Shown piece by piece: positions 16,643 to 42,253 of a stretch of 48,912 bases of DNA. This stretch comes from Lichenifustis flavocetrariae (lineage in GTDB: Bacteria > Pseudomonadota > Alphaproteobacteria > Rhizobiales > Beijerinckiaceae): NCBI RefSeq assembly GCF_026130545.1, contig NZ_JAMOIM010000035.1, forward strand, positions 1 through 48,912, written 5' to 3'. The notes under the pieces were generated by a model, which saw only the letters and a program-made list of their open reading frames with translations, had not been told where the DNA came from and made no database searches. Both the position numbers and the translations under genes were made by a program. The first letter of the stretch is position 1, and each line of letters begins with the position of its first letter.

Positions 16643-16933
16643 CTGAAACGGCCGCGTTCAATGTCGGTCTGGTGGAACCATGGTGCCCCTGACGTGAACC
16701 GCCAGATGGCGCGCAGGACGCCCTGCGCCATTGTACCGGAGCGTCGAGGCTGCCGTGACCTGAGCGTCCTCGCGCGGGGTGAGGGGAACCGTTCAGCGAC
16801 CCAGCATGTCGCTCAGGATCGTTGGAAACGCTGCCCTTACTGAAAATACCCCCGCGTCGCTCGCGGCCAGGTGAGATCGTCCCAGCGACGCCCGCGGCTG
16901 ATTTTCAATCTACATTCCGCTTCGAGGCAAAAA

Positions 16934-16976
16934 CGCATATTCACTATGCGAATATTTGCGATCCGATACGGGATCG
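16934..16976. repeat. Cluster of inverted repeats, AT-rich, related to dispersed CGCATAG repeats
   Basis: CGCATATTCACTATGCG (16934-16950) has perfect 6-bp arms. ATATTC/GAATAT (16937-16955) is a second, overlapping dyad. CGATCC/GGATCG (16959-16976) is a third. The minus strand reads ATTCGCATAG, a core shared with repeats at 30913, 31082 and 32081. Confidence 0.75.
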
Positions 16977-16982
16977 AAAGCT

Positions 16983-17001
16983 TGTGCCAACGCTTGGCAC
17001 A
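16983..17001. promoter_or_regulatory. Perfect 19-bp palindrome, candidate operator
   Basis: TGTGCCAACGCTTGGCACA: 8-bp arms with a 3-bp centre, 53 bp upstream of the ParD-like ATG. It may bind a dimeric regulator. It could also form a short hairpin, but no T-run follows, so a terminator is less likely. Confidence 0.6.
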
Positions 17002-17053
17002 GCCCTTACTGAGGTTCCTCATCGGAGCCACCGCGATTCCAATACGCAAGACC

Positions 17054-17221
17054 ATGAACGTGTCCGTGACGCCGGAGCTGGAAGGTGCGGTCATGGCGCG
17101 CGTGGCCGCCGGCCGCTACCGCACGGCGAGCGAGGTGTTCCGCGCGGCGTTGAGGCTCCTCGACAAGGAGGAACCGCTCGACGCGGCCGTCCTCCCTCGC
17201 AGGGAAGGGGGAGAGACGACC
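17054..17221 (+). pseudogene. ParD/CopG-like ribbon-helix-helix fragment, in frame with the kinase
   Basis: From ATG 17054 the frame reads MNVSVTPELEGAVMARVAAG and RYRTASEVFRAALRLLDKEE, the ribbon-helix-helix DNA-binding half of ParD-type antitoxins. The toxin-binding tail of a normal ParD is absent and no parE follows. There is no stop codon before the kinase ATG at 17222, so a fused product of about 405 residues is possible. The upstream ribosome site is weak. I read it as a truncated antitoxin that may or may not be translated as a kinase extension. Confidence 0.6.
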
Positions 17222-18271
17222 ATGTCGGACCAAGCCGGAAAGTCCAGCAAGCAGAAGCACGCCGAGTCCGACGTCGAAGGATTCCGCGAGGACCTGGGTC
17301 CGTTCGTCGTCGCTGCCGAGACGACGCGAATGCCGATGGTGTTCTCCGACGCCACGGCTCCGGACAACCCGATCGTCTTCGTCAACCAGGCCTTCCTCGA
17401 CCTGACGGGCTACGACGAGCAAGAGGTGCTCGGACAGAAGTTCGACTTCCTGTTCCGGCAGGGCACGGACCCCGAGGCGCTGACGGAGATCCGGACGGCG
17501 TTCCAGGGCGGCCGAGGCCTCGAAACGCCGGTCCGCTTCCGGCGCAGGGACGGCGGCACGGTCTGGGTCTCCATCTTCATCAATCCGGTACGGGACGGCG
17601 CGGGGAGGGTCGTGCAGCACTTCTCTTCCTTCGCGGACGTGACGACGCACAAGCGGGAAGAGGAGCGGCTCAGGTTCCTGCTGGACGAACTCAACCACCG
17701 CACCCAGAACACGCTCGCGACGGTCCTTGCGATCGCCGGGCAGACGTTGCGCGGCATGGCGGCCGAGCGGACCATCGAAGCCTTCGAGGGGCGCATCCTC
17801 GCCCTGTCGAAGACCCACGCGCTCCTCGGCTCCGAAAATTGGGACAGGGTCGGCCTTCGGGACATCCTCGACCAGACGCTGGGGACCCTGGGGATTCGGG
17901 CCCGAGTCTCGATCGAGGGGAACGACGTTCCCCTCCGGCCGAAGGAGGCGTTGAGCCTCACGATAGCGTTCCATGAATTGGCCACCAACGCCATGACCTA
18001 CGGCGCGCTCTCGACCGACGGCGGAACGGTCGACGTATCGTGGCGGCTCGAACCCATGCCGAACGGCGATCGGGTCCGTTTGCATTGGAGCGAGAGCGGA
18101 GGCCCTCCCGTCACCCCACCTTCATCCACGGGATTCGGCCGGCGGCTCATCGAGGGCGGCTTGGCACAGGACCTGAACGGCGAGGTGCGCCTTGCCTTCG
18201 AGGTCACGGGAGTGACTTGCGAGATCGCGATGCCGGTCCCGAAAGGGGATCGGTGGGCGAGCCATGACTGA
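17222..18271 (+). CDS. LOV-like PAS / HWE-family histidine kinase
   Basis: A 349-residue soluble sensor kinase. A PAS domain very like LOV domains covers about residues 20-130: VVAAETTRMPMVFSDA, NPIVFVNQAFLDLTGY, then GQKFDFLF where true LOV domains have the photoactive Cys in NCRFLQ. The Cys is missing, so classical flavin photochemistry is not expected. The kinase part has the phosphoacceptor His in DELNHRTQNTLATV, the N-box HELATNAMTYGALS and the WxE motif in LHWSESGGP, all defining HWE kinases. ATG 17222 has a strong site (AGGGGGAGAG). The stop overlaps the next gene by 8 bp, so the two are co-translated. Confidence 0.88.
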   Translation: MSDQAGKSSKQKHAESDVEGFREDLGPFVVAAETTRMPMVFSDATAPDNPIVFVNQAFLDLTGYDEQEVLGQKFDFLFRQGTDPEALTEIRTAFQGGRGLETPVRFRRRDGGTVWVSIFINPVRDGAGRVVQHFSSFADVTTHKREEERLRFLLDELNHRTQNTLATVLAIAGQTLRGMAAERTIEAFEGRILALSKTHALLGSENWDRVGLRDILDQTLGTLGIRARVSIEGNDVPLRPKEALSLTIAFHELATNAMTYGALSTDGGTVDVSWRLEPMPNGDRVRLHWSESGGPPVTPPSSTGFGRRLIEGGLAQDLNGEVRLAFEVTGVTCEIAMPVPKGDRWASHD

Positions 18272-19661: not shown

Positions 19662-19754
19662 GTCCCGCGTACCCGCTATCCAGCGAACAAGTCCCGAAGA
19701 CGCCCCGCAAGGACGACCGTTCGAAAGCCTCCATGTGGCCCGTCGAGTCGCGGT

Positions 19755-21872: not shown

Positions 21873-22026
21873 GGTTTTCTCCTCAGGCATGGCGCCGACC
21901 GCGCGGCGACTTACCACGATATTCGTCGAGAGAGCCTCGTTCCGGTGCGGTTCAGTTGTCGGAAAGGCAGGTCCGCAAATCGGTGATCCCCGCAGCCTTA
22001 ATATGAATCCACAGGGCGATCAGGAT

Positions 22027-22064
22027 CCGTTTCCGAATAGTCGCAACCCATGATCGCTTGGCGC
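22027..22064 (+). repeat. 38-bp intergenic repeat, class B copy 3
   Basis: Starts CCGTTTCCGAATAGTCGC and aligns without gaps over 38 bp to 30913-30950 (32 of 38 identical) and 42087-42124. It sits about 40 bp upstream of where old-yellow-enzyme homology begins. Confidence 0.85.
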
Positions 22065-22318
22065 CTGTGAGGTTCGCCCAGTCCAACGTGCCGCCCGTCG
22101 CACCGATCATCCGCAGGGTCTTCAAGGGACCCCTGATCCTCAACTCGGATTACGACGGTCCCCGGGCGCAGGAGGCACTCAACGACGGCGGGGCCGACGC
22201 TATCGCGTTCGGCCGGGCGTTCCTGCCAGATCCGGATCTCTCCCGCCGAAGCCAAGACTATTTGGCGTTCACGGAAGGCAACGTCGCGACCAGGTACACC
22301 CGGGGGCCGAAAGGCTAA
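22058..22318 (+). pseudogene. C-terminal fragment of an old yellow enzyme (NADH:flavin oxidoreductase)
   Basis: From about 22094 the frame reads IIRRVFKGPLILNSDYDG, then GADAIAFGRAFLPDPDL and a final YTRGPKG. This is the end of the TIM-barrel of NemA-type flavoenzymes, including the FMN-phosphate-binding GRAFL region. About 280 N-terminal residues are missing, and the usual last residues after GPKG are cut by a stop. It is not functional. The 22319-22554 interval holds only a short unassigned frame ending in LTGNAVERIK at 22518. Confidence 0.75.
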
Positions 22319-22554
22319 ATCGACTATGCCTGGGCTCCCGGATGACCAATGGTGCCGGGCGTATCGGAAAGAGCGTGATCCGGGTCCATCGTCCTTGGCA
22401 GCCGCCGGGGTTGGCGAGACAGGCTGCCCGTCGAACGCAACTGGACCGGGCCTACGCCAGGAAAGATCGTCGTTGGCTTCAGCCGCTGACGGGCAACGCT
22501 GTCGAGCGCATCAAGTAGGGAAGCCGCCCATCCGAGGCGCGATACGGAGCAAGC

Positions 22555-23838: not shown

Positions 23839-24174
23839 AACCGCGTCGAGCACGCCATCTCCGCCACGCGATCGGTTCCCGGCCTCCCCGCGCGGCTGGG
23901 CCGGACCCCTCGATCGAAATCGCGCACAGCCCGCAATTGAGAACGCGCGACATGACGTTCGCCGACGCTGGACGCTCGCCGTCATCGCGGCGATCCGGGC
24001 ACCTCGTCGCAACCGTTTTCGCATTCCCGGTCAGCGCCTTTGATCGTCTCGCTCGGCAGGAATGCCTGTCATCATCATGGACAGCGTGACTACGATCGCG
24101 AACGGGCTTGAACGACGCTGCGGGACGACAGGCGTGCCGACGCAATCCGTCGCCAACCATGACCAGGTACGAAC
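23839..24174. other. Gap with repeat copy
   Basis: No gene is supported. It holds the class A repeat at 24013-24033, about 140 bp upstream of the next start; the remainder shows nothing recognisable. Confidence 0.6.
24013..24033 (+). repeat. Intergenic repeat, class A copy
   Basis: CCGTTTTCGCATTCCCGGTC, then A; 19-20 bases are shared with 42233-42253. Downstream TTTGATCG and GCTCGG echo the GATCGCTCGG part of the 38-bp class B copies, suggesting one related family. Confidence 0.8.
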
Positions 24175-24840
24175 ATGAAAATAGGCATCATCGGCGCCGG
24201 CCAGATCGGCGGCACGCTGACCCGCCGCCTGACCGCGCTCGGACACCGCGTCGTCGTGGCGAACTCCCGCGGCCCCGAGACCCTCAAGGCGCTGGCTGCC
24301 GCGACCGGCGCGACCGCGGTCTGGGCGGTCGAGGCTGTCCGCGACGTGGATCTCGTCGTCGTCACGATCCCGGAGAAACGTGTTCCCGAACTGCCCGCCG
24401 GCCTCTTCGCCGACGCCCCGGAGCGACTGGTCGTCGTCGACACGGGGAACTACTACCCGCGCCAGCGCGACGGCCTCATTGCTGCCATCGAGGGCGGCCT
24501 GCCGGAGAGCGTCTGGGTCGAGCAGCAAATCGGCCGTCCGGTCATCAAGGCGTTCAACAACATCCATGCCGGACACCTGATGGACCTCGGCAAGCCCCAG
24601 GGGACGCCGGGACGCATCGCCCTGCCGGTCGCGGGCGACGACCCGGAGGCCAAGGCAACCGTCATGACGCTCGTCGAGGAACTTGGGTTCGACCCCGTCG
24701 ATGCCGGCGGCCTCGATGCTTCCTGGCGGCAGCAGCCGGGCACGCCTGTGTACGGCGGCGACCTCGACGCGGCCGGCGTCCGTCGCGCCCTGGGCGAGGC
24801 GAGCAAGCCCCGGACGCCGGAGTGGAGCGCCGTCACGTGA
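24175..24840 (+). CDS. F420H2:NADP oxidoreductase-like NADPH-binding protein
   Basis: A 221-residue protein. The N-terminal Rossmann motif is MKIGIIGAGQIGGTLTRRL, followed by VVVANSRGPETL, VDTGNYYP and KAFNNIHAGHL, the signature of the NPFR-like (F420-dependent NADP reductase-related) family. The same fold is used in alphaproteobacteria without F420, so the true cofactor partner is unknown and it may be a general NADPH-linked reductase. ATG 24175 has an AGGTACGAAC ribosome site. No operon partner is adjacent. Confidence 0.87.
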   Translation: MKIGIIGAGQIGGTLTRRLTALGHRVVVANSRGPETLKALAAATGATAVWAVEAVRDVDLVVVTIPEKRVPELPAGLFADAPERLVVVDTGNYYPRQRDGLIAAIEGGLPESVWVEQQIGRPVIKAFNNIHAGHLMDLGKPQGTPGRIALPVAGDDPEAKATVMTLVEELGFDPVDAGGLDASWRQQPGTPVYGGDLDAAGVRRALGEASKPRTPEWSAVT

Positions 24841-25267
24841 GCCGCGCTCCATTCTTCGACGCCAACGGCATGCTCGACGGCTAGTCGCGAGGAGACTTCT
24901 AAGATCCGATCATCATCGGATCGGTCAGGTCGAATGGCGCTCGGACGGGAGACTGGCCCGTTCCCCTATGGGATGCCCACTCTCCATTTACAGACACCGG
25001 GAATGCGAAAACGCTTCGACGCTCCAGCCGACAAGCATGCATTACTTGGCGAGAGAGGCCGCCACGCTCTTGCAGCGGGCGGCCCGAGTTTGGGGAGGAA
25101 GCGCCCCGGAGCGGCAGGCATCGAGGCAACGTTACGCGGTCCAGCCGTGGATCGAGGTCGGTGTTCGGCGTCGATCGAGGCGGTGCGGAAGGCCGGCAAC
25201 TCGCGGTGCGACCTAACGGCGAAGCGGAGCCGCCACTCGCGGCCCGATCGACTCAGCGGAGGACGCC
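24841..25267. other. Gap with an inverted repeat and a repeat copy
   Basis: No gene is supported. GATCCGATCATCATCGGATC (24903-24922) is a perfect 8-bp stem with a 4-nt loop, possibly a weak terminator or operator although no T-run follows. The repeat core lies at 24996-25014 on the minus strand. The rest is unremarkable. Confidence 0.6.
24996..25014 (-). repeat. Intergenic repeat, class A copy, reverse orientation
   Basis: On the minus strand it reads GCGTTTTCGCATTCCCGGT, identical over 19 bases to 42233-42251. Confidence 0.8.
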
Positions 25268-26026
25268 TTGCGCGCTCGAGACATCATGTCGACGGAAATG
25301 ATTACCGTCAGGTCCGATGCGGCCATCGAAGACGCCGTGCGGATCATGCTCGCCTCGCACGTCAGCGGTCTGCCCGTGGTTGACGACGCCGGACGTATCG
25401 TCGGCATCGTCACCGAAGGGGACTTCCTCCGTCGAGAGGAACTGGGCACCGAGCGCCGCCGGCCCCGGTTGCTCGGCTTCCTGCTCGGACCCGGCAGTCT
25501 TGCCGACGACTATACCCACTCGCATGGACGCAAGGTTTGCGAAGTCATGAGCCAAGAGGTCGTGACGGCATCGCCCGACACGTCGATCGAGCGCATCGTC
25601 GACCTGATGGTCTCGAAGGGCATCAAGCGACTTCCCGTCGTGCGGGACGGCGTACCGGTCGGGATCGTGGCCCGGGCCGACATCCTCCGCGCGTTCGCCA
25701 AGGCCAGTCCGTTCAGGTGGCCGGACCCGATGCGGGATGACGCGGACATCCTTTCCGAGATCTTGGCCGAATTCGATCGCGAGAGATGCATTCCCAAGGG
25801 TGCCGTCGACGTCCTCGTTCGCGATGGCCAAGTCGAGCTGCGCGGATCGATTTCCGACGAGCGAGAGCGCGCGGCGGTCCGCGTGGCGGTCGAGAACGTG
25901 CGGGGCGTTCGCGCGATCAAGGACCACATCGTCTGGGTGCTGCCCATGACGGGCGCGTTCGAACTCTCGCCGGAGGACCGAAAGGCCGAGGACGCCCGGT
26001 CCGCCTCTCTCGCGAAAGTCCCATGA
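25268..26026 (+). CDS. CBS-pair and BON domain protein
   Basis: 252 residues. Two CBS motifs (DIMSTEMITVRSDAAIEDAV ... LPVVDDAGRIVGIVTEGDF, about 5-60; VMSQEVVTASPDTSIERIV ... LPVVRDGVPVGIVARADIL, about 95-150) form a Bateman module that usually binds adenosyl nucleotides. A BON domain follows (about 170-225: VDVLVRDGQVELRGSI, NVRGVRAIKDHIVW), which commonly contacts membranes or phospholipids. This two-part architecture is common in stress loci of alphaproteobacteria. The start appears to be TTG 25268 (MRARDIM); the ATG at 25286 would shorten the first CBS. Confidence 0.88.
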   Translation: MRARDIMSTEMITVRSDAAIEDAVRIMLASHVSGLPVVDDAGRIVGIVTEGDFLRREELGTERRRPRLLGFLLGPGSLADDYTHSHGRKVCEVMSQEVVTASPDTSIERIVDLMVSKGIKRLPVVRDGVPVGIVARADILRAFAKASPFRWPDPMRDDADILSEILAEFDRERCIPKGAVDVLVRDGQVELRGSISDERERAAVRVAVENVRGVRAIKDHIVWVLPMTGAFELSPEDRKAEDARSASLAKVP

Positions 26027-26207
26027 CCCCGCCTGTCCGATGCAATGCGGGACCCAATCATGCCCTGGTCATGATCCGAAACGGCCGTCGCGCTCCGGTG
26101 CAGGACCGGCCTATGGGTCCCCTTCCGCAAGCCGGCTGCACGTGGCCTCTCGTTGTGCAGTCGAATATCCGTAAAAGCCGAGCGTCCGAGGCCCGGGAAC
26201 CGAAGCG

Positions 26208-29429: not shown

Positions 29430-29468
29430 GGGAGGGCGCCTAGACCGGACGCCTCATGGGGTCGACCG

Positions 29469-29853: not shown

Positions 29854-29935
29854 CGGCTCGACCTCATGAGAGTGGGGCGTCGTGCTCGACGCCGAAGGGT
29901 CGCGTGGCCCCATCGACGCCGCGAACGAAGCGCCG

Positions 29936-30868
29936 TCATGCCGCCGGGGCAAGCTCGGTTTCATCCTGCACGGGATTGAGTTCATCGCCGCGCTGGCGGA
30001 CCCACTTGGTGATGTGATCGAGGGCGGCCCGGATGCGGGGAGTGTCGCGATTGTCCTTGTGCACGACCTGCCAGATGCCCGTGCTCGGTATCTGGGTCGG
30101 CAGCGGCGGGGTCTTCAGCCGAACGAGCCCTGGCTCGGCGTCCGCGCAGTAGCGGACGAGGCTGGCCAGGCCTCCTCCTTGTTTGGCGGCCGCGAGCGCG
30201 GCCGCGTGGCTGCTGGTCTGCATGGCGATGCGCGCCCGAGGCGCAAGCTCCGCCAGCCAGTCCGTCTGGGTCGCGTCCTGGATGCCTTCGAGTTGGGTGA
30301 TCAGACGGTGCCCGGCGCAGCCCGCGTCGTAGTCGCATTCGCCGTGCCGTTCGAGGTAGCCGGGGCTGGCGTAGAGCCCGAAGGCGAGCGTGCCGATCCG
30401 GCTGACGAGGAGGTCGTGCTGTTCGGGTTGCCGAAGACGGATGGATATGTCCGCCTCGCGCATGGAAAGGCTGAGTTCCCGAGGGTTAGGGATCAATTCG
30501 ACCATGATGTCGGGTTGCGTTTCGTAGAGCGTCCCCAGGCATGGCGCGACGAGGTTGCTGGCGATCGTCTCCGCGCAGGTGACGCGGACCGGGCCCGCCA
30601 TGCGCAGGTCGCGTCCGACCACTTGGCGCTCCAGCGCAAGTGCCTCCGCCTCGACCAGTTCCGCCTGCTTGCGGACATCTTCGCCGGCCGGCGTGGGCAC
30701 GTAGCCGTCCGGGGTCCGGTTCAGGAGCCGGACGCCCAGGCTGGTTTCCAGGGAGTTGAGGCGGCGGCCCACGGTCGACTGGGCCACGTGCAATTGCTTC
30801 GCGGCACCCGAAAGGCTGCCCAGACGTGCTACCGCGAGGAAAAACCTCAGGTCATCCCAATCCAGCAT
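29936..30868 (-). CDS. LysR-family transcriptional regulator
   Basis: A 310-residue regulator. The winged helix-turn-helix is MLDWDDLRFFLAVARLGSLS ... QSTVGRRLNSLETSLGVRLL (residues 1-48), followed by an effector domain. The start has a good site, AGGAG, before the ATG. A copy of the 38-bp repeat lies 45 bp upstream. It is divergent from the nitroreductase gene across a 403-bp gap, so control of that gene is possible but not shown. Confidence 0.9.
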   Translation of the reverse strand: MLDWDDLRFFLAVARLGSLSGAAKQLHVAQSTVGRRLNSLETSLGVRLLNRTPDGYVPTPAGEDVRKQAELVEAEALALERQVVGRDLRMAGPVRVTCAETIASNLVAPCLGTLYETQPDIMVELIPNPRELSLSMREADISIRLRQPEQHDLLVSRIGTLAFGLYASPGYLERHGECDYDAGCAGHRLITQLEGIQDATQTDWLAELAPRARIAMQTSSHAAALAAAKQGGGLASLVRYCADAEPGLVRLKTPPLPTQIPSTGIWQVVHKDNRDTPRIRAALDHITKWVRQRGDELNPVQDETELAPAA

Positions 30869-30912
30869 AGGGCTCTCCTAAACACGCGACGGACGCCCGA
30901 ACCAGACGCTTT

Positions 30913-30950
30913 CCGTTTCCGCATAGTCGCTACCCGGGATCGCTCGGTGC
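30913..30950 (+). repeat. 38-bp intergenic repeat, class B copy 1
   Basis: Begins CCGTTTCCGCATAGTCGC; 34 of 38 bases match 42087-42124 without gaps. Confidence 0.88.
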
Positions 30951-31081
30951 GTTCGAGATCAGAAAAGCTTATCGGGGAGACGTATTGCAGGTCGATCGTG
31001 GAGTTTCTTTGCGTCGGGACGAAGGTCCTCCCACGTCCGGTCCGACAAGTTTACATCTACCAACGACACCCTAGCGACATA

Positions 31082-31119
31082 CGCCGCATGCGATCTTCGA
31101 TACTCGCTATGCGAAAACG
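31082..31119 (-). repeat. Divergent copy of the 38-bp repeat, reverse orientation
   Basis: The minus strand starts GCGTTTTCGCATAGCG, then GATCGC in register with class B; about 25 of 38 match copy 1. It links the class A start (GCGTTTTCGCAT) with the class B middle (CATAG). Confidence 0.65.
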
Positions 31120-31271
31120 CTGCTTCCACGTCGGCTCGACTCGGCCGCCGTGGCTTCGGAGCGGCCTACCATGAACCATCTCATCGTGGTCGCCCGTCCC
31201 GTCGAACCTCCTGCACCGGTCTCCCCGAGGCCTGAAGGCGCGGCCAGCGTCGGAAACAAGGACATCGCGAA

Positions 31272-31832: not shown

Positions 31833-32187
31833 GGACGAAGCGCGTGCGGCGACGACCTGCCGAGAGGCCGACTAAGCTCGGTCCGAAGCGCCTCCGGCAA
31901 GCACCCGGCGTTCCCGATGAAAGGACCGCGAACGTTTTCGCAGGCGCGACTGGACTCTTGGCAATATCGCAGCCGCGCGAACCCTGTTGCAGGGCTGATC
32001 GAGGCATTTGAGCCTGCACTGGCCGCCGCGACCGATGTCGACGGCCTGACGTCGGACCGGCGTCGACTCACGCGTACGCATATTCGCATAGCCGCGGCGC
32101 GAAGTCGGTTCGGGTGTGAAGGTTGACGTTGGACTACAGGTCGATCGGCCAGGGCGAACGCCTTTGCTTCTGCATTGGATCGCCACG
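31833..32187. other. Gap with two partial repeat cores
   Basis: No gene is supported. ACGTTTTCGCA at 31932-31942 and TATTCGCATAG at 32081-32091 are partial matches to the dispersed repeat family. Confidence 0.55.
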
Positions 32188-32703: not shown

Positions 32704-32744
32704 CGAGGCGTTCCACCCGACGCGTAAGCCTTAGGAGATCATCG

Positions 32745-33503
32745 ATGCTCATCGCAGTTTCAGCGCTCAAGGGATACGCCGTCGAGGCCAGTGACGGCGG
32801 CGGGATAGGGAAAGTCCACGACCTCCTGTTCGACGACGTGACCTGGCGGCTCCGATGGCTCGTCGTCGACGTCGGGTCCTGGCTCAGCGATCGAAAGGTC
32901 CTCGTCCATCCCTCGTCGATCCGGAACCCGGATTACGTCGGCCAGGTGCTGCCACTCACCCTGACGAAGCTCCAGATCGAGAATAGCCCGCCGCTCGCGA
33001 CGGACCAGCCCGTGTCCACCAGGATGGAAACGAACCTCTTCGACTACTGCGGATCGGATCCGCTCTGGGGTTACAGCTACTTCGGTGGGGATGGCCTCGG
33101 AGGGCCCTTGGGCGGTCCGAGGTACCTCGGCGGACGTGACGGTGTCGGCCTCGCCGACGACGACGAAGGCGACCCGCACCTTCGCAGCCTCGCCGAGGTC
33201 ACCGGCTACCACATGCACGCCGTGGATGGCGAGATCGGCCATGCAGAGAACTTCCTCGTCGACGACGCCAACTGGGACGTCCGCTACATCATCGTGGACA
33301 CCAGGAACTGGTGGCCGGGCGAGCATGTCCTGATCTCGCCTTACGCCGTGAAGGCCGTCAGCTGGAGGGCCCGTGAGATCAGGCTCGACGTCGGTCGCGA
33401 GAGGGTGAAAAGCAGTCCGCCTTGGGACCCGATCGCAATGATCGACCAGGTCTACGAGAAGAAACTCCACACCCATTACGGCTGGCGTGGTTACGGCTTC
33501 TGA
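32745..33503 (+). CDS. Two-copy PRC-barrel domain protein
   Basis: A 252-residue soluble protein with two PRC-barrel domains: one at about 1-75 (GGGIGKVHDLLFDDVTWRLRWLVVDVG) and one at about 150-225 (VDGEIGHAENFLVDDANWDVRYIIVDTRNWWPG). A Gly/Asp-rich linker joins them. PRC-barrels are small beta-domains found in RimM and photosynthetic reaction centre H subunits; stand-alone versions are common in rhizobial stress loci with unknown role. The TTAGGAG site precedes ATG 32745. It lies directly upstream of the H+-ATPase gene, which suggests a membrane-linked task. Confidence 0.9.
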   Translation: MLIAVSALKGYAVEASDGGGIGKVHDLLFDDVTWRLRWLVVDVGSWLSDRKVLVHPSSIRNPDYVGQVLPLTLTKLQIENSPPLATDQPVSTRMETNLFDYCGSDPLWGYSYFGGDGLGGPLGGPRYLGGRDGVGLADDDEGDPHLRSLAEVTGYHMHAVDGEIGHAENFLVDDANWDVRYIIVDTRNWWPGEHVLISPYAVKAVSWRAREIRLDVGRERVKSSPPWDPIAMIDQVYEKKLHTHYGWRGYGF

Positions 33504-33627
33504 ACACGGGGAGGCACCACCACCCCTCGCGGCCTCGTCAGCGCGGCCGCGCTTCCATCGTTCCGAAGCACTGGCTCGCTGCGGCCATATCGGCGCATCC
33601 CGACATTGCACCGAAGGCTCAGCCCTC

Positions 33628-36096
33628 ATGGAAACCAAACCCGCCGACGCCCAGGTTGCCGGTTCCGAGAGGGAATCGAAGGCCGAACGCGAGAAGGGAT
33701 CGAAATCGCCGTCGAAGGTCATCGACGCGAACGCGGCTCGGGATGCGCCGAAATCGACCGATCCCGCTGACGTTACTGCCGGCGCCGCTCAACAGGCAGG
33801 GCTGACGAGCGACGAAGCGCGCGCGCGGCTCGACAAATTCGGGTCCAACTCCCTGCCGGACACCGGCGCGCATCCCCTGCGGATGGCGCTGGAGAAGTTC
33901 TTGGCGCCCGTGCCGGGGATGCTGGAAGCGGCGGTCGTCCTGGAGGTGGTTCTCGGCAAGTACGCCGAGGCTGCGATCATCGTCTTCCTCCTCCTGTTCA
34001 ACGCCGCCCTCGGCCTGTTCCAGGAGAGCCGCGCCCAGGCAACCCTAACCGCACTGAAGGCGAAACTGGCGCTGTCCGCGTCGGTGCGACGTGACGGCAA
34101 ATGGAAGACCGTACCCGCCGCGGAGCTGGTCCCCGGCGACTTGGTGAAGCTCTCGCTCGGCGGCGTGGTCGCCGCCGACTTGAAGCTGACGAGCGGGGAG
34201 ATACTGTTGGACCAGTCGATGCTGACCGGCGAATCGGTCCCGATCGAAGGCTCCGCGAACCTCCAGACCTATGCCGGGGCATTGGTTCGGCGCGGTGAGG
34301 CCGAGGGGGTCGTCACGGCCACCGGCGGACGGACCAAGTTCGGCCGGACGGCTGAACTCGTTCGGACCGCCCATGTCGTGAGTTCCCAGCAGAAGGCGGT
34401 CCTGCGCGTCGTGCTCAACCTTGCCGCCGTCAACGGCGTCGTCATCCTGATGCTGGTGGGCTATTCCTGGTTCATCGACATGCCGGTCGGCGAGATCATC
34501 CCGCTCGTCCTCACGGCGATCCTTGCGTCCATCCCGGTCGCGCTGCCCGCCACCTTCACCCTCGCCTCGGCCCTCGGCGCCCGCGCCCTCGCCCAGAAGG
34601 GCGTCCTGCCGACCCGCCTCTCCGCCGTGGACGAGGCGGCATCGATCGTCGTGCTGTGCGCGGACAAGACCGGCACGCTGACGCGCAACGCGTTGAAGGT
34701 CGCGACCGTCCGTCCGGAACCGGGTTTCGACGAGGCGCACGTCCTGGCACTGGCCGCGCTCGCCAGCTCGGACGGCGGAGACGACCCGGTCGACGGGGCC
34801 ATCCGCTCGGCCGCCGCGGGCAAGCCCGTCCCCGACGCGCCGAAGCTGGTCAAGTTCGCCGCGTTCGATCCGGCCAAGAAGATGTCCGAGGCGACGGCGA
34901 CCGGGGCCTCGGGGGACGCGCAACGGATCGTGAAGGGCGCTTTCGTCGTCGTCGTCGCACTGGCCCAGTCCTCACCTGGCGCCGCGGTCGCGGCCAAGGA
35001 ACTCGAAGGCCAGGGTTTCCGGGTCCTGGCGGTCGCGGCCGGGTCCCCCACGGCGATGAAGCTCGCGGGACTGATCGCGTTGAGTGATCCGCCCCGTCAG
35101 GATTCGGCCGGGTTGATCACCGAGTTACACGGCCTCGGCATCCGCACCGTGATGGTGACGGGCGACGCGCCGGCCACGGCGGCCATCGTCGCCAAGGCCG
35201 TGGGACTGGCCGGCCCGATCTGCCCGCCGGAGCCGATCCCCGACGCCGTCCGGCCGGAGCAGTTCGCGGTGTTCGCCGGCGTCCTGCCGGAAGACAAGTA
35301 CAAGCTCGTCAAGGCGTTCCAGACGGGCGGCCATGCCGTCGGGATGTGCGGCGACGGGGCCAACGACGCACCGGCCCTGCGCCAGGCCCAGATGGGCATC
35401 GCGGTCTCGACGGCGACCGACGTCGCCAAGTCGGCCGCCGGCATGGTGCTGACGGAGCCCGGGCTCGGGGGCATCGTCGCCGCGGTCAAGGAAGGGCGGA
35501 CCACGTTCCAGCGGGTCCTCAGCTACACGCTCAACTCCATCACGAAAAAGACGGTGCAGGTGCTGTTCCTGGCGGTCGGCTTGCTCATGACCGGCCACGC
35601 GATCCTGACGCCGATGCTCATGGTCCTCATCATGATCACCGGCGACTTCCTCGGCATGGCGTTGACGACCGACAACGTCCGTCCGTCGCCCGCGCCGAAC
35701 GCGTGGCGGATCGCCCCCCTGACCGTCGCCGGCGTCAGCATGGGGCTCGGCGAGTTGCTCTTCTGCTCGGCCATCCTGGTCTTCGGGTTCTACAGGATGG
35801 GCTTTGCCATCGGCCCGTTGCAGACGCTGGCTTTCGTCGCGATCGTGTTCGGCAACCAGGCGACGACCTACACCAATCGTGAGCGCCGCCACCTGTGGTC
35901 GTCCCGGCCCAGCTCCTGGCTGATCGCGTCGTCGACCGCCGACATCCTGATCGCCTCGACGCTCGCGGTCGGCGGCATCGCGATGGCGGCCCTGCCGCTT
36001 TGGCTGGTCGTTTCCACGCTCGCCGCCGCGGCGGTCTTCGCGGTCCTCCTGGACTTGGTGAAGGTGCCGCTCTTCCGACGTCTCGCGATCACCTAG
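33628..36096 (+). CDS. P3A-type (plasma-membrane) H+-ATPase
   Basis: A 822-residue P-type ATPase of the proton-pumping class found in plants, fungi and some bacteria and archaea. Features are a charged N-terminal leader of about 55 residues; helices 1-2 (APVPGMLEAAVVLEVVLG, AAIIVFLLLFNAALGLFQE); LDQSMLTGESVPI; helix 4 with ASIPVALPATFTLA; DKTGTLT with phosphoacceptor Asp 346; MVTGDAPAT; and CGDGANDAPALRQA. It has no CPC motif, so it is not a heavy-metal pump. It should export protons at the cost of ATP. ATG 33628 gives the usual start; a GTG at 33487 is possible. PPK2 follows 21 bp downstream. Confidence 0.92.
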   Translation: METKPADAQVAGSERESKAEREKGSKSPSKVIDANAARDAPKSTDPADVTAGAAQQAGLTSDEARARLDKFGSNSLPDTGAHPLRMALEKFLAPVPGMLEAAVVLEVVLGKYAEAAIIVFLLLFNAALGLFQESRAQATLTALKAKLALSASVRRDGKWKTVPAAELVPGDLVKLSLGGVVAADLKLTSGEILLDQSMLTGESVPIEGSANLQTYAGALVRRGEAEGVVTATGGRTKFGRTAELVRTAHVVSSQQKAVLRVVLNLAAVNGVVILMLVGYSWFIDMPVGEIIPLVLTAILASIPVALPATFTLASALGARALAQKGVLPTRLSAVDEAASIVVLCADKTGTLTRNALKVATVRPEPGFDEAHVLALAALASSDGGDDPVDGAIRSAAAGKPVPDAPKLVKFAAFDPAKKMSEATATGASGDAQRIVKGAFVVVVALAQSSPGAAVAAKELEGQGFRVLAVAAGSPTAMKLAGLIALSDPPRQDSAGLITELHGLGIRTVMVTGDAPATAAIVAKAVGLAGPICPPEPIPDAVRPEQFAVFAGVLPEDKYKLVKAFQTGGHAVGMCGDGANDAPALRQAQMGIAVSTATDVAKSAAGMVLTEPGLGGIVAAVKEGRTTFQRVLSYTLNSITKKTVQVLFLAVGLLMTGHAILTPMLMVLIMITGDFLGMALTTDNVRPSPAPNAWRIAPLTVAGVSMGLGELLFCSAILVFGFYRMGFAIGPLQTLAFVAIVFGNQATTYTNRERRHLWSSRPSSWLIASSTADILIASTLAVGGIAMAALPLWLVVSTLAAAAVFAVLLDLVKVPLFRRLAIT

Positions 36097-36117
36097 GCCG
36101 GATCAGGAGTGCATCGA

Positions 36118-37011
36118 ATGGCGACGAAGATCGATTCCAAGGACTTTCGCGTGCGCGAGGACGACGAGGTCGATCTCGAGAAGTGGCCCACGCGCGTCGA
36201 ACCCGTCTACCGGTCGAAGGAGCAATACCAGTCGATGCTCACGGACCATGTCGGCCGCCTCAGTGATCAGCAGCAGCTCCTCTACGCTTCGGATCGGCAT
36301 TCCGTCCTGCTGATCTTCCAGGCCATGGACGCCGCGGGGAAGGACGGCGCGATCAGGCACGTGATGTCCGGCGTCAATCCGCAGGGTTGCCAGGTCTTCA
36401 GCTTCAAGCACCCGAGCGCCGCGGAGTTGCAGCACGATTTCCTCTGGCGCACCACCCGTGACCTGCCGGAGCGCGGGCGGATCGGGATCTTCAATCGGTC
36501 GTACTACGAAGAGGTTCTGATCGTCCGCGTCCATCGGGAAATCCTCCTGGGCGAAGGTGTTCCCGACGCGCCGCGCCACGACAAGGAACTTTGGCACGAT
36601 CGTTATCGGTCGATCCGCAACCAGGAGCGGCACCTCCACGCCAACGGCACCCGCATCGTCAAGTTGTTCCTTCATATGTCAAAAGAGGAGCAGCGGAAGC
36701 GCTTCCTCGCTCGCATCGACCAGCCGGACAAGAACTGGAAGTTCAGCGATGCCGACGTGAAGGAGCGCGAGTCATGGAAGCGTTACATGACGGCCTATGA
36801 GGAGTGCCTGGGCAAGACGAGTACGGGCGACTCCCCTTGGTACGTCGTGCCCGCCGACGACAAGGAAAACGCGAGACTCATCGTGTCACAGATCGTCCTC
36901 GACACGTTCGAGGAGTTGAAGATGTCTTTCCCGAAAACCAGCGAGGAGCGACGCCTTGAATTGCTGTCAATGCGCAATCGGTTGGAGCCTGAAACCAGGA
37001 GGCCGGCATGA
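36118..37011 (+). CDS. ppk2: Polyphosphate kinase 2 (PPK2)
   Basis: A 297-residue PPK2: Walker A in [16 protein letters not shown] (about 68-83), Walker B-like [21 protein letters not shown], lid Arg residues in [21 protein letters not shown], and [16 protein letters not shown]. It moves phosphate between polyphosphate and nucleoside diphosphates. ATG 36118 is preferred over GTG 36109 because CAGGAG is 8 nt upstream of it. It follows the H+-ATPase gene by 21 bp and so could supply ATP for the pump from polyphosphate; this link is inferred. Confidence 0.92.
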
Positions 37012-37222
37012 TCGTGACTAGGGTTGCGCGGCAGAACCATTGCGCCAGTGTTCTCCCGAAGCACGCTTTCGAGCGTCGGCGTAGCCCCGGCACCTGAAAG
37101 GTCATCTCACGGTCAATGCCGAGGTTGGCAATGGCTTGCTCTCGTTCACGAAGATCTGTTCGCGTCAGATGACTGCGCCGCGCGCAGTGCGCCGCCGCAG
37201 CCGCATCCGCATCGACAAGGGC

Positions 37223-37982
37223 TCAGTGCCGTTCGGCGGTCCTTTCCAGGTGGCCGCCGAACCCGAAGCGGAGCGCCGACAGGACACGGTCGGCGTAGTC
37301 GGCCTGGCCTCGGGAGCCGAAGCGGGCGAACAGGGCGGCCGATATCACCGGCGCCGGCACGTTCTCGTCGATGGCCGCCTGGAGGGTCCACCGCCCTTCG
37401 CCGGAGTCCGACACCCGGCCGGCGTAGCCATCCAGCCCCGGGCTTTCCCTCATGGCTGCCGCGGCGAAGTCCGGCAGCCATGACGAGACGACGCTGCCGC
37501 GCCGCAACATCTCGGCGACCTGCGGTACGTCGATGTCGTATTTGTAGAGTTCGGGATTGCGTAGCGGCGTCGTCTCCGCATCGGCCGCCGCCGGGGCGAG
37601 GAGCCCGGCGTTAACGTGCATGAGGATGTCCAAGCCTTCCGCGTAGGAGGCCATCATCCCGTATTCGATACCGTTGTGGACCATTTTCACGAAATGCCCG
37701 GCGCCGATCGGCCGCAATGGAAGTAGCCCATCTCCGCGTTGGTCGGTTCGCCGGTGGCCCCGGCGGTTCGCGCCGCGGCGTCGACGCCGGGCGCCAATGC
37801 ACGAAAGATCGGATCGAGCCGTTGCACGATAGCCGTATCGCCGCCGATCATGGCAGAAACCACGCTCCAGCCCCCAGACTCCGCCGCTCACGCCGACGTC
37901 GACGTGTGCAAGTTCTTCGCGCGCAGCTCGCCGGATATCGTCGTGGTAGTAGGAATTGCCGCCGTCGAGCACGACGTCACCC
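37223..37982 (-). pseudogene. gnd: 6-phosphogluconate dehydrogenase, N-truncated with two frameshifts
   Basis: The sequence starts at GDVVLDGGNSYYHDDIRRA, already beyond the NADP-binding Rossmann domain; about 75 N-terminal residues are absent and a stop lies just upstream. SGGVWGLERGF is in frame, then one extra C near 37850 shifts the frame. Segment MIGGDTAIVQRLDPIFRALA ... TNAEMGYFHCG is in the second frame. A missing C near 37713 restores the first frame at IGAGHFVKMVHNGIEYGMM, with the catalytic Lys. The C-terminus to 37223 appears complete. This is a broken gene of the decarboxylating GndA/YqeC-like type. Confidence 0.82.
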
Positions 37983-38034
37983 GATTAAAGAAGGGGCGTC
38001 AGCGTCGAGATCACCGAGTCCACACTCGGATCCC

Positions 38035-38928
38035 TCATGCAACGGCTTTCAAGGGCGGCGAGATCGACGGGTTTGGAGCGGCCAAACCGGCCAACACCAA
38101 CGCGGAAGCCGGGTTCATCGCTTCCACCATCGACGTCGGGATAAGGATGGTCGACCCCCTCTCCTTGGTCGTCTCGTAGATGATGTTCATCGCTCGCAGC
38201 TGCAGGGCGATCGGGTACTCGGCGTAGGTCTTCGCGGCCGCGACAAACCGGCTGGCGACCTCGTCCTCGGCTGATCCAAGGATGATACGGGCTTGCTTCT
38301 CCCGCTCCGCCTGCGCTTGGCGCGACATCGCATCCTGAAGCGCCACGGGGATCGCCACGTCGCGCACCTCGACCGAGGTCACCGAGATGCCCCAGGCCGA
38401 TGTCTTCGCGCCGATTTCGGCTCTGAGCTGTTCGTCGGCCGCCTTCCTGTCGGACAGCAATGCGGCCAGCATCGAGGAGCCGATCATCTCGCGGAGCGAG
38501 GTCTGCGCTACCCGATCGATCGCTTGACGATAATCCGTGATCTTCAAAGCGGCTGCCTCCGCGTCGTGCACGTGCCAGAAGATGATGGCGTCCACGTTGA
38601 CCGGCACCGTGTCCTTGGTCAGCGCCTGCTCGGCGTTGAAGGCCGTCGTCTGGATCCGTTCGTCGATGACGGCGATGACCCGGTCGAACACGGGAATGAT
38701 CAGGAACAAGCCGGGCCCGCGGACGCCCTGGAGCTTGCCCGCTCGAAGGATCACGAACTTCTCCCAGGAATTGGCAACCTTGAGCGAGAGGGCGACGAGC
38801 ACGGCTGCAACGAAGAACAGGATGGCCAGGGGTACGGCGAACCAGCTGAACGACAACGTGCCGAATCCGGCAAGCGCCAATCCGCAAAGGAAGAGGATCG
38901 TTGCCAGCAGCGATGTGATCGGGTTCAT
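38035..38928 (-). CDS. Slipin / stomatin-like SPFH membrane protein
   Basis: A 297-residue SPFH protein. Two N-terminal hydrophobic segments (about 6-25 and 29-48) are followed by the SPFH domain (WEKFVILRAGKLQGVRGPGLFLIIPVFD, DERIQTTAFNAEQALTKDTVPVNVDAI). A coiled region rich in Gln and Glu (about 205-240) and the usual C-terminal hydrophobic tail follow. It is close to slipin-1. It probably forms membrane microdomain oligomers. ATG 38928 has AGGAGCCGTCGC. It lies upstream of the broken gnd on the same strand; a NfeD partner is not present in the window. Confidence 0.9.
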   Translation of the reverse strand: MNPITSLLATILFLCGLALAGFGTLSFSWFAVPLAILFFVAAVLVALSLKVANSWEKFVILRAGKLQGVRGPGLFLIIPVFDRVIAVIDERIQTTAFNAEQALTKDTVPVNVDAIIFWHVHDAEAAALKITDYRQAIDRVAQTSLREMIGSSMLAALLSDRKAADEQLRAEIGAKTSAWGISVTSVEVRDVAIPVALQDAMSRQAQAEREKQARIILGSAEDEVASRFVAAAKTYAEYPIALQLRAMNIIYETTKERGSTILIPTSMVEAMNPASALVLAGLAAPNPSISPPLKAVA

Positions 38929-39039
38929 GCGACGGCTCCTGGACGCTCGAACTTCATGCCCCAATTGAGACATATCCGGGTGAACGCGCAGGTGACCGTT
39001 GCCGACGTGCCTGATTTCGCGTTTGGACTATTCGTTTCC

Positions 39040-39298
39040 GCATTCGACCGATCATGGCGTGCTGCACGAATTGAAGGAGCCCGGTGAGGGCGGCCGTGGC
39101 CGTGCCGGTCAGGATGCCCGTGAGCACCACCGCCAGCCAGAACGCGGCGGCACCGGCTTGGCGCAACGACGTGGGGACTTCCTCGCGGATGGGTGAACGA
39201 TTCAAGGGCCCGCACGATTCCTGGCGAGGAGAGAGCGACACGCCCCTGATCAGGCGCCGATCACGCTCCGCCGAGTCAAGTGCGGCGTCGACCGTCAA
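39040..39298 (-). pseudogene. N-terminal fragment of a ClC-type chloride channel
   Basis: The minus strand reads AERDRRLIRGVSLSPRQESC, then EEVPTSLRQAGAAAFWLAVV and LTGILTGTATAALTGLLQFVQHAMIG, the cytosolic leader and first helix of ClC-family antiporter-like proteins. The frame then runs into the repeat-like sequence at 39033-39052 and no further ClC sequence follows. Around 350 residues are missing. The 39299-39582 stretch to the copA2 stop holds nothing I recognise. Confidence 0.6.
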
Positions 39299-39582
39299 TC
39301 TCGATGGTCGTCAGACCTGGTTTCCAGCCTCCAAGGAAACCGCGTGATCGCGACGCGCGGGGACCTTGCTTGGATCAGGGCTTGCATCGACCACGGCCCG
39401 CTTTGCAGCCCGCGACCGCGAGGCACGTCGATCCGGGATCCGTCGACGATGGCGGCAAGCCGTTCTCGACGACACAGAGCCTTCGGCTTCCCGTCCTGGC
39501 TGATGGACTTCGCGCCGGCTTCAATCCAGATCGGACGAAGTACCAGGACCTGCTCCAATGCCTGACCTTTGCATAAGGCCCT

Positions 39583-41945
39583 TCAACCCAGGCGCGCGGA
39601 TCTAAGCCGTAACGCGTTCCCGATGACAGACACGGAGCTGAGCGACATCGCAAGCGCGGCCACGATGGGGCTGAGCAGGATTCCGAAGGCCGGGTAAAGC
39701 ACGCCGGCCGCCACCGGGATGCCGATCGCATTGTAGGCGAAGGCGAACATTAGGTTCTGGCGGATGTTGCTCATCGTCATCCGGCTGAGCGCGACCGCTC
39801 GCGCGATGCCGGCGAGGTCGCCCTTGACCAGCGTGATTCCGGCGTTCTGGATGGCGACCTCGGTGCCGGTCCCCATGGCGATCCCGACATCGGCCTCGGC
39901 AAGGGCCGGGGCGTCGTTGACGCCGTCGCCGGCCATGGCCACCACCCGGCCTTCCGCCTTGAGCTTGCGGATAGCGTCGTGCTTGCCCTCGGGCAGGACA
40001 TCGCCCTGAACCTCCTTGATGCCGAGCAGCCGCCCGATCGCCTGGGCCGTCGCGACATTGTCGCCCGTCAGCATGAGGATCCTGATGCCGTCCGCGCGCA
40101 AGGCGTCGAGCGCGGCGGCGGTGCTCGACTTGACCGGATCGGCGATGGCGATCACCGCCCCGGCCCTCCCGTCCACGGCCATGAAGAGGGCTGTCGCTCC
40201 GTCGCGGCGCAGTTCCCCCGCCCGTGCGGTGGACGGGCCGAGGTCGGCCCCGGCGTCCCGCATCATGGCCTCGTTGCCCAGCGCAACCGAGCGTGGGCCG
40301 ACCTTGCCCGTGACCCCTTGCCCATGACGGAGGCGAAGTCGGTGGGGTCCTGGACCGTGATGCCCTTGTCGCGCGCCGCCGCGACGATGGCGGCGGCGAG
40401 CGGATGCTCGCTCGACCGCTCCAGGCTCGCCGCCAGGGCGAGCACGTCTGTCTCCGACAGGCCTTCGGCAGGCACGATCGCGGTGACCTTGGGCTTGCCC
40501 TCCGTCAGCGTGCCGGTCTTGTCCACCACCAGTGTGTCGACCTTCTCCATGCGCTCCAACGCCTCGGCTGACTTGATCAAGATTCCCGCGCCCGCCGCCT
40601 TGCCGACGCCGACCCCGATGCTCATCGGCGTGGCCAGCCCGAGCGCGCAGGGGCACGCGATGATCAGGACGGACACGGTCGCGATCAGCCCGTAGGACAG
40701 CGACGGCGGGGGTCCCCAGGCGGCCCAGGCCACGAAGGTCATGACGGCGATCCCAAGCACTGCGGGAACGAAGTAGCCGGCGACGGTGTCGGCCACGCGT
40801 TGGATCGGGGCCCGGCTCCTCTGCGCCTCGGACACCATCTGGACGATGCGCGCCAGCATCGTGTTGGACCCGACCTTGTCGGCTCGCATGACAAGGGCGC
40901 CGGTGCCGTTCACGGTGCCGCCGATCAGCTTGTCGCCGGCACCCTTGGCGGCCGGCATAGACTCGCCGGTCACCATCGATTCGTCGACGGCGCTGCGGCC
41001 GTCGAGCACGACGCCGTCGACCGGCACGCCGCTGCCAGGGCGTACGCGCAACGAGTCACCGACCCGGACTTCCGCCAGCGGCACCTCCTCGTCGGTCCCG
41101 CCCTTTCCCACGCGCCAAGCCGTGTTGGGCGCGAGTTTGAGCAAGGCGCGGATCGCACCGCCGGTCTGGTCGCGGGCGCGCAGCTCCAGCACCTGGCCCA
41201 GCAGCACCAGGACGACAATGACAGCCGCCGGCTCGAAGTAGACGGCGACCATGCCGCCCATCTCATGGAAGCCGGCCGGGAAGAGGCCCGGCACGAAGGT
41301 CGCGACGAGGCTGTAAAGGTAGGCAGCGCCGGTTCCGAGCGAGATCAGACTGAACATGTTCAGGCTGCGGTGGAGCACGGACGCCCAGCCGCGCTCGAAG
41401 AAAGGCCAGCCGGCCCACAAGACGACCGGCGTCGACAGGACGAACTGGATCCAGGTCGAGACATGCGGCGGGACGAGCTTGTCGAGGCCCAGGGCCGGGA
41501 CGTGGCTCCCCATTTCCAGGACGAAGATCGGCAGAGTCAGGGCGAGGCCGATCCAGAAGCGACGGGTCATGTCCGCCAATTCATGGTTGGGCGGCGCCTC
41601 CGCCGTGACCGTCAGCGGCTCTAGGGCCATGCCGCAGATGGGGCAGCTTCCCGGCCCCTCCTGCCGGATCTGCGGGTGCATCGGACAGGTGTAGATCGTG
41701 CCGGCCGGTGAGGTAGACGCGCGGCGTTTCTCGGTACGGATGTATTTGGCCGGCTCGGCCAGGAACTTGGTCCGGCACCCGGCCGAGCAGAAGAAGTGCG
41801 TCCTACCCGCTCGCTCGGCCTTGTAGGCGGTCTTCAATGGATCGACCGACATCCCGCAGACCGGGTCCTTGGCCGTCGCAACCGATGACGTGGCCGTACT
41901 ACCTCGATCGGCAAGGCCGCGGGATTCGTGAGCCGACGCATCCAT
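39583..41945 (-). pseudogene. copA: Second copA (Cu+ P1B-ATPase), one frameshift
   Basis: By eye the core is about 90% or more identical to the copA protein at 3360-5984, including CPC, DKTGTLTEG, SEHPLA and GDGVNDAP. The N-terminus is shorter: one YHS-like domain (KDPVCGMSVDP, FCSAGCR) and the CPMHP/CPICGM domain. One base is lost near 40315: GKGS is read where GKGVTGK is expected. The reading therefore ends near 40263 after about 560 residues; the last 220 residues continue in the other frame to 39583. As sequenced it lacks the hinge part of the ATP-binding domain and the last helices. ATG 41945 has AAGGA. If the indel is an error this is an active second pump. Confidence 0.85.
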
Positions 41946-42086
41946 GACGATGAGTCCTTCCTTGCCGGCCTCGCACCTTACCTCATGCCGAGGCAAAGCA
42001 ATCCCCGGAGGGCCTCGGGACTCGGATCGTCCTGCTCCAGCATAGGCTGATCACGATAGGCGACGATCCGCTTCGGCAGATAGGTT

Positions 42087-42124
42087 CCGTTTCCGAATAG
42101 CCGCTACCCGAGATCGCTCAGTGC
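42087..42124 (+). repeat. 38-bp intergenic repeat, class B copy 2
   Basis: Begins CCGTTTCCGAATAGCCGC; 34 of 38 bases match 30913-30950. Confidence 0.88.
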
Positions 42125-42232
42125 ATTCCACGTCGGACGAGCCCATGCCGCGGTTCCAACAAGGCTGGAACGGGAAGCCGAGGTCCCGTCCAACACCCCG
42201 ACAACGGAGTTTCGTCACCGCGGATGCGCGAA

Positions 42233-42253
42233 GCGTTTTCGCATTCCCGGTCA
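42233..42253 (+). repeat. Intergenic repeat, class A copy
   Basis: GCGTTTTCGCATTCCCGGTC, then A; shared with 24013-24033 (one mismatch at the first base) and 24996-25014. Confidence 0.8.

What the first reader, a model, noticed from the sequence alone, without database searches (positions are those of the whole stretch)
16643..42253. Dispersed intergenic repeat family, three ungapped 38-bp copies and several core copies
Class B (30913-30950, 42087-42124, 22027-22064) aligns over 38 bp with 4-6 differences. Class A (21047, 24013, 24996 reverse, 42233) shares a GCGTTTTCGCATTCCCG core. A divergent copy at 31082 has the class A start and the class B middle, and partial cores lie at 16934, 31932, 32081 and 39033. 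Nearly all are between genes, and none is explained by coding. It could be a control site shared by the redox, stress and N-ATPase genes, or a small mobile repeat.
Basis: seen in the sequence. Interest (0 to 1): 0.75.

Follow-up and report, generated by a model that had tools for sequence, protein, structure and literature searches.

The report
Stress-island LysR operator, 35-bp palindrome
The scattered repeats are copies of one 35-base mirror-symmetric DNA switch that sits in front of stress genes and, in many related bacteria, at a fixed distance in front of a LysR-type regulator gene, so they most likely are that regulator's landing sites and not a mobile repeat.

Summary
The repeats are real. 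The window holds 11 (plus one weak overlapping match), all intergenic by my gene caller; shuffled windows give about 0.4. The fetched stretches of the own genome hold 62 matches above score 17, mostly in paralogous stress islands. The arms do not covary, so it is a protein site, not a hairpin. Ends of duplicated blocks do not coincide with it. Another species of the genus has 27 sites in 125 kb around its four LysR genes and 2 weak ones in 260 kb elsewhere. In LysR orthologs of other genomes the site lies 26-32 bp upstream of the LysR start in 25 of 38 (permuted matrix 0.02), against 3 of 38 distant homologs. Best explanation: operator of the LysR-type regulator at 29936-30868, which would regulate itself and the island's stress genes. 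The site has two dyads 21 bp apart, reminiscent of OxyR's, and lacks the classical T-N11-A box. Binding was not tested.

The parts
16925..16959 (.). palindromic operator, centre 16942; 112 bp upstream of PAS/HWE kinase gene 17054-18271(+)
   Evidence: matrix score 28.8; 31.2 with the G004-trained matrix; distance
   Evidence: 24.5; 24.4; distance
   Evidence: 30.4; 24.5; distances
24011..24045 (.). operator (class A), centre 24028; 147 bp upstream of F420_oxidored-domain protein 24175-24840(+)
   Evidence: 21.2; 26.1; distance
24982..25016 (.). operator (class A, reverse), centre 24999; 287 bp upstream of CBS-BON protein 25286-26026(+)
   Evidence: 28.5; 22.6; distance
30911..30945 (.). operator (class B), centre 30928; 60 bp upstream of the LysR gene start (possible autoregulatory position)
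   Evidence: 29.6; R1 E 6.5e-4
31088..31122 (.). operator, centre 31105, best of the window by the main matrix; between LysR (-) and nitroreductase 31272-31832(+), 167 bp before the latter
   Evidence: 34.8; R1 E 3.6e-4
32076..32110 (.). operator, centre 32093; 95 bp upstream of ORF 32188-32703(+), which matched no Pfam family
   Evidence: 26.0; 25.6
39009..39043 (.). weaker operator, centre 39026; 98 bp upstream of Band-7 protein 38035-38928(-)
   Evidence: 20.2; 18.3; distance
42085..42119 (.). operator (class B), centre 42102; between P-type ATPase ORF 40263-41945(-) and N-ATPase beta subunit gene 42443(+)
   Evidence: 31.0; R1 E 7.7e-4
42231..42265 (.). operator (class A), centre 42248; 195 bp upstream of the N-ATPase beta subunit gene; sites lie at 200 bp upstream of its paralogs in C117 and C179 and at 166 bp (score 16.1) upstream of a like gene in G004
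   Evidence: 26.6
29936..30868 (-). LysR-type transcriptional regulator, proposed to bind the operators; 10 matches in the genome counting this one, three of them with in-frame stops
   Evidence: Pfam HTH_1 1.8e-21, LysR_substrate 3.1e-26; copies; near-fixed operator position upstream of orthologs

Best explanation
The repeats are operator sites of the LysR-type regulator encoded at 29936-30868(-) and of its paralogs (10 matches in this genome counting it). SHOWN by computation: one 35-bp dyad with half-site CTATGCGAAAACGCTT and a 3-bp centre; each half is, at consensus level, itself a weak palindrome centred 10.5 bp from the middle, so the site offers two dyads 21 bp (two helical turns) apart; it is mostly intergenic and upstream of genes; it is conserved in front of LysR orthologs in other genera and its presence follows that of the close LysR. 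INFERRED: a LysR dimer of dimers covers the four recognition elements, as OxyR does; the site 30 bp (here 60 bp) upstream of the LysR start gives autoregulation, probably repression; the other sites switch the island's stress genes (N-ATPase, HWE/PAS kinases, nitroreductase, P-type ATPase, CBS-BON and BON proteins, chaperones, universal stress proteins). The signal is unknown; a thiol/redox or electrophile signal is a guess from Cys98, present in all 39 close orthologs aligned and in 2 of 38 distant ones.
For: Dyad and enrichment: 54 sites above 15 in 414 kb of motif-bearing contigs, 1 in 260 kb of other contigs, 0.9 on average (max 3) for 10 column-permuted matrices (the first set of contigs was chosen because it held the core). 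Independent species G004: 27 sites above 13 (24 intergenic) in 125 kb around four LysR genes, 2 (13.8 and 13.5) in 260 kb of control stretches. The 5 places found in G004 genome-wide with model R1 at E<=0.01 all lie within 13 kb of a LysR gene. LysR footprint: centre 26-32 bp upstream of the LysR start, score above 8, in 25 of 38 orthologs of 58% identity or more (200 permuted matrices: mean 0.02, max 1) and in 3 of 38 homologs under 50%; at score above 5 the distance is exactly 30 bp in 19 loci. 32 sites in 37.6 kb within 500 bp of LysR against 17 in 280 kb further away, 0 of those 17 inside called genes. Plasmids: 2 places found in a 556-kb Microvirga terrae plasmid, both flanking LysR; 1 in each of two Azospirillum plasmids, beside LysR. 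Co-occurrence in 120 relatives, own genome included: LysR in 7, R1 places at E<=0.01 in 2, both among the 7 and the only two with a LysR copy of 78% identity or more; none in the 113 without LysR. 9 of 10 own LysR copies have a match above 11 within about 1.5 kb. Ser31, in the helix-turn-helix region, is in all close homologs and 0.21 of distant ones, which mostly lack the site.
Against: No binding or expression data. The operator lacks the classical LysR box: T-N11-A at its best register in 0.24 of oriented sites. 5 of 7 LysR-bearing relatives had no R1 match at E<=0.01 (strict filters), although all 10 of their LysR loci have a matrix match above 11 within about 1.5 kb, in L177 only a distant one. 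Of 12 LysR-bearing genomes reached through loci, only 4 had an R1 match at E<=0.05. 13 of 38 close orthologs have no match above 8 at 26-32 bp. One own LysR copy (C106) has no site nearby. In the own genome the LysR-proximal site is at about 60 bp or further, not 30. The footprint is partly shared ancestry of promoters, although the site region is more conserved (0.41 bits per column) than its flanks (0.19-0.23) in 29 non-redundant loci. Whether other island proteins co-occur with the site as well as LysR does was not searched.
Confidence: 0.8

Rival explanations
1. The dyad is the operator of another island-borne regulator (for example a response regulator or an unrecognised DNA-binding protein), and LysR is only one of its conserved targets.
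For: The site lacks T-N11-A; the island encodes other signalling proteins such as HWE/PAS kinases; sites lie near many genes.
Against: On the Microvirga and Azospirillum plasmids the only sites found flank LysR, and the gene neighbours differ from the window's; the position near 30 bp is specific to close LysR orthologs. Other co-occurring proteins were not searched systematically.
Confidence: 0.15
2. Mobile repeat or site-specific recombination site that shuffles gene modules between islands.
For: Several copies lie in paralogous blocks whose gene order differs; long palindromes resemble recombinase sites (recalled).
Against: Block ends fall within 20 bp of a dyad centre in 4 of 132 intergenic ends, 3.96 expected; near-fixed distance to the LysR start across genera.
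Confidence: 0.03
3. RNA hairpin or REP-like element acting in transcripts.
For: It is a palindrome in intergenic DNA.
Against: The two arms of a copy match each other no better than arms of different copies: 6.61 of 14 against 7.06 shuffled in 62 non-redundant sites; no Rfam family in the window at the gathering threshold.
Confidence: 0.01
4. Non-functional similarity left by segmental duplication of islands.
For: Several copies do share long flanks.
Against: A greedy set of 25 of the 54 own sites, pairwise under 70% alike, still fits the dyad; 62 such sites over several genera.
Confidence: 0.01

Closest known systems
OxyR operator and regulon (LysR family)
   Same: Regulator of the LysR family; [quoted passage not shown] stress genes as targets.
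   Different: Element sequences differ (TATGCG and CGC in place of ATAG/CTAT); dyads 21 bp apart with 3-bp centre; the regulator's best NCBIfam models are YafC and GcvA, far below their cut-offs; the OxyR cysteine pair was not examined; signal unknown.
Classical LysR box T-N11-A / CTATA-n9-TATAG (PMC5002191, passages seen)
   Same: Inverted-repeat site next to the LysR gene, which here is divergent from a possible target.
   Different: T-N11-A is not conserved here; the site is about twice as long; sites lie upstream of many genes.
LsrB of Agrobacterium (redox LysR; PMC11975290, passages seen)
   Same: Alphaproteobacterial LysR-type stress regulator with conserved cysteines.
   Different: Cysteine positions differ as far as the passages and one search show; the regulator here is multi-copy and present in only 7 of 120 relatives.

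Membership tests
LysR-type regulator (the protein) | N-terminal LysR winged HTH and C-terminal LysR substrate-binding domain | tested here: met
   Pfam HTH_1 1.8e-21 and LysR_substrate 3.1e-26, above cut-offs
LysR-type operator | Dyad site in the LysR upstream region, conserved across orthologs | tested here: met
   25 of 38 close orthologs at 26-32 bp, permuted 0.02
LysR-type operator | T-N11-A core | tested here: not met
   best register 0.24 of oriented sites
LysR-type operator | Bound by the LysR protein in vitro or in vivo | not testable with these tools
   needs EMSA, DAP-seq or ChIP-seq
OxyR | Equivalog-level similarity to OxyR | tested here: not met
   no OxyR model among the best 25 of 46 NCBIfam matches; the best, YafC, has 93.5 bits against a cut-off of 470, the 25th 39.6 bits
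OxyR | Four recognition elements, two dyads about two helical turns apart (works-like feature) | tested here: met
   at consensus level: half-site palindrome centred 10.5 bp from site centre, 0.46 of pairs complementary against 0.11-0.38 at other centres
Mobile repeat / recombination site | Sequence breakpoints at the element | tested here: not met
   4 of 132 intergenic block ends within 20 bp, 3.96 expected
REP/hairpin element | Covarying complementary arms | tested here: not met

The most novel reading that the evidence does not exclude
The islands are portable, self-contained regulons: each carries its own copy of one LysR regulator and four-element operators in front of many of its transcription units, so that newly acquired or duplicated stress genes arrive wired to a shared, possibly thiol-sensing, LysR switch. 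Up to ten paralogous regulators reading the same operator in one genome would form a cross-talking, dosage-buffered global LysR regulon.
Probability: 0.35. Interest if true: 0.7.

Novelty: new member of a known kind. Interest (0 to 1): 0.55.

Why it matters
It gives an unnamed group of LysR regulators a concrete operator and a target list that can be tested at once, in the genus of Lichenibacterium and in Methylobacterium, Azospirillum and Skermanella. It also suggests how stress islands arrive pre-wired: a regulator and its operators travel together. A LysR regulator with dozens of operators and many co-resident paralogs would be unusual (recalled general knowledge: most LysR regulators serve one or a few operons).

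Tried and rejected
Two separate repeat classes: dropped once hits on opposite strands, 16 bp apart, showed a single dyad. Hairpin/REP: rejected by lack of arm covariation. Recombination site: disfavoured by the breakpoint test. Rfam: no match in the window at the gathering threshold. Iterating an unconstrained one-strand matrix drifted to 494 low-quality sites and was dropped. Plasmid searches for the window's island: of 126 records matching 26000-42500 the 20 listed all hit the P-type ATPase stretch; 29900-32100 hit the LysR gene of 3 plasmids. Seven literature searches (open-access library only; 6 to 15 papers listed each, some out of far more) listed no paper on this regulator or operator; of the listed papers I saw passages of three and only listings or abstract beginnings of the rest. 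Structure prediction was not used, as it would not show DNA specificity.
Full report
WHAT IS THERE. The window is one whole 48,912-bp contig (C109) of a 7.52-Mb assembly in 180 contigs. Genome-wide the class A core occurs 6 times exactly and 2 times with one mismatch, with no hit to the reversed control. Several of these are in paralogous blocks that share long flanks, and blastp shows that small contigs of the assembly carry copies of the window's genes (N-ATPase-like operon, LysR, kinases, ABC exporter, P-type ATPase). So part of the likeness is duplication.

ONE PALINDROME. Counting of words in island intergenic DNA returned pieces of the same word. Matrix hits came in pairs on opposite strands, 16 bp apart. 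Built as a symmetric matrix, the element is 35 bp: AAGCGTTTTCGCATAG-NNN-CTATGCGAAAACGCTT, with a 3-bp centre in the model. 54 sites score above 15 in 414 kb of motif-bearing contigs (51 intergenic), against 1 in 260 kb of other contigs and a mean of 0.9 (maximum 3) for 10 column-permuted matrices. The first contigs were chosen because they contained the core, so this contrast is biased; the controls came from contigs with a weak core, which works the other way. Further tests avoid the bias. A matrix trained only on 25 sites of another species finds 12 sites above 12 in the window, all 12 intergenic, against 0.45 in shuffles. A matrix from 19 of 43 sites on other own contigs, those less than 70% like any window site, finds the same 12 at that cut-off. 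Both training sets were picked with the first matrix, so some circularity remains; shuffles control for it. One of the 12 (42227) is weak and overlaps 42248, so I count 11 sites. Gene positions come from my own simple gene caller, not from an annotation.

PROTEIN SITE, NOT HAIRPIN. In 25 non-redundant own sites the two arms match at 6.88 of 14 positions, shuffled pairs at 7.39; in 62 sites from all genomes 6.61 against 7.06. Each half fits the consensus on its own; on average the stronger half scores 15.6 and the weaker 7.4. At consensus level each half is itself a weak palindrome centred 10.5 bp from the middle (0.46 of pairs complementary, 0.11-0.38 at other centres), which gives two dyads 21 bp apart.

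NOT A RECOMBINATION SITE. Of 132 intergenic ends of paralogous blocks, 4 fall within 20 bp of a dyad centre; 3.96 are expected.

THE LYSR LINK. The best dyad of the window by the main matrix lies between a LysR gene (29936-30868, minus) and a nitroreductase gene. LysR relatives on a Microvirga terrae plasmid and two Azospirillum plasmids have dyads beside them: two places found in the 556 kb of the first, one in each of the others, all next to LysR. The LysR neighbours there are OsmC, DUF2382, YsnF/AvaK and PhnA-like genes, unlike those of the window. A search of named genomes gave 80 LysR loci (the best of 118). Among 38 of at least 58% identity, 25 have a dyad score above 8 centred 26-32 bp upstream of the LysR start, against a mean of 0.02 (maximum 1) for 200 permuted matrices; among 38 below 50% identity, 3 do; 4 loci between 50 and 58% were not counted. 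The commonest distance is exactly 30 bp (19 loci at score above 5; 8 at 29 bp). With a cut-off of 12 it is 17 of 38 at 20-40 bp, permuted mean 0.04, with a maximum of 4 in 100 runs. Many loci also have a site shortly downstream of LysR. Conservation in 29 non-redundant upstream regions is 0.41 bits per column in the site and 0.19-0.23 outside. Within 500 bp of LysR there are 32 sites above 15 in 37.6 kb, further away 17 in 280 kb, none of the 17 inside a called gene.

CO-OCCURRENCE. Of 120 relatives, own genome included, 7 have the LysR at E<=1e-70 and 2 have R1 places at E<=0.01; both are LysR-bearing (own genome and G004, whose four copies are 78-86% identical), and none of the 113 others has one (the two calls made the same request and their printed lists agree; the second used strict filters). 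The other 5, with LysR of 54-65% identity, had none at that cut-off, though all 10 of their LysR loci hold a match above 11 within about 1.5 kb, in L177 only a distant one. Of 12 LysR-bearing genomes reached through loci, 4 had an R1 match at E<=0.05 and 8 none, so the model is near its limit in whole genomes. G004: 27 sites above 13, 24 intergenic, in 125 kb around its four LysR genes, 2 weak ones in 260 kb of hand-chosen control stretches. In the own genome 9 of 10 LysR copies have a match above 11 within about 1.5 kb; C106 has none. R1 in the own genome gave 98 rows at E<=10, both strands counted, best E 3.6e-4, from a capped first look (150 of 603 candidates scored).

TARGETS. In G004, of 10 proteins near sites sent to Pfam, 9 matched: pyridoxal decarboxylase, BON, Cpn10, PRC-barrel, aldehyde dehydrogenase, DnaJ, AI-2E transporter, universal stress protein, ferritin-like; an atpD-like gene, recognised by eye, has a site 166 bp upstream. 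In the own islands 57 of 67 gene-site pairs are 50-350 bp from the start, the search being limited to 450 bp.

HOST. Same-genus genomes G002 and G003 are identical over LysR loci to records of Lichenibacterium minor and L. ramalinae, so the host belongs with Lichenibacterium in the genus used by the collection.

MECHANISM. LysR regulators commonly act as tetramers (recalled), and OxyR uses four elements at 10-bp intervals (PMC3953959, passages). The geometry here fits that. A 35-bp site centred 30 bp before the LysR start would overlap its promoter or ribosome site, which suggests negative autoregulation (inference). Cys98 is present in 39 of 39 close orthologs (window included) and 2 of 38 distant ones, Cys184 in 37 of 39 and 9 of 38; a redox or electrophile signal is a guess. 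The binder could still be another protein; I give that 0.15.

KNOWN OR NEW. The protein is a LysR regulator by domains; the closest NCBIfam models are far below cut-off; the closest solved chains at E<=1e-20 are four LysR-family sequences, best 9hh1 and 3hhg. The operator lacks T-N11-A, so it is not a classical LysR box. Seven searches of the open-access library listed no description of it.

Noticed in passing
window 17054-18271: PAS-HWE histidine kinase whose residues 10-43 match the ParD antitoxin/RHH family (1.2e-07); the C117 paralog is 56 residues shorter as called. Either a fusion or a start-site artefact.
   Followed up: no
window 3360-6116 and 39583-41945: Two close copies (91% and 89% identical over two 300-nt stretches) of a heavy-metal P-type ATPase gene; the second copy is called as two adjoining ORFs.
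   Followed up: no
own genome, C109, C117, C179 and others: Three copies of much of the N-ATPase-like operon and ten matches to the LysR gene, three with in-frame stops (C116, C119, C123).
   Followed up: partly
window 22067-22318: C-terminal fragment of a flavin oxidoreductase (Oxidored_FMN, slightly below the Pfam cut-off); a 384-residue relative is in C149.
   Followed up: partly
window 9557-10015: Protein with a (Leu-Trp)n run encoded by a GTGGCT tandem repeat at about 9685-9760.
   Followed up: no
LysR 29936-30868: 38 of 39 close LysR sequences have Cys in a column where the window copy does not (apparently Ser236, read from alignment A2), while the window copy and two own paralogs have Cys at 241: a possible shift of a conserved cysteine.
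   Followed up: partly
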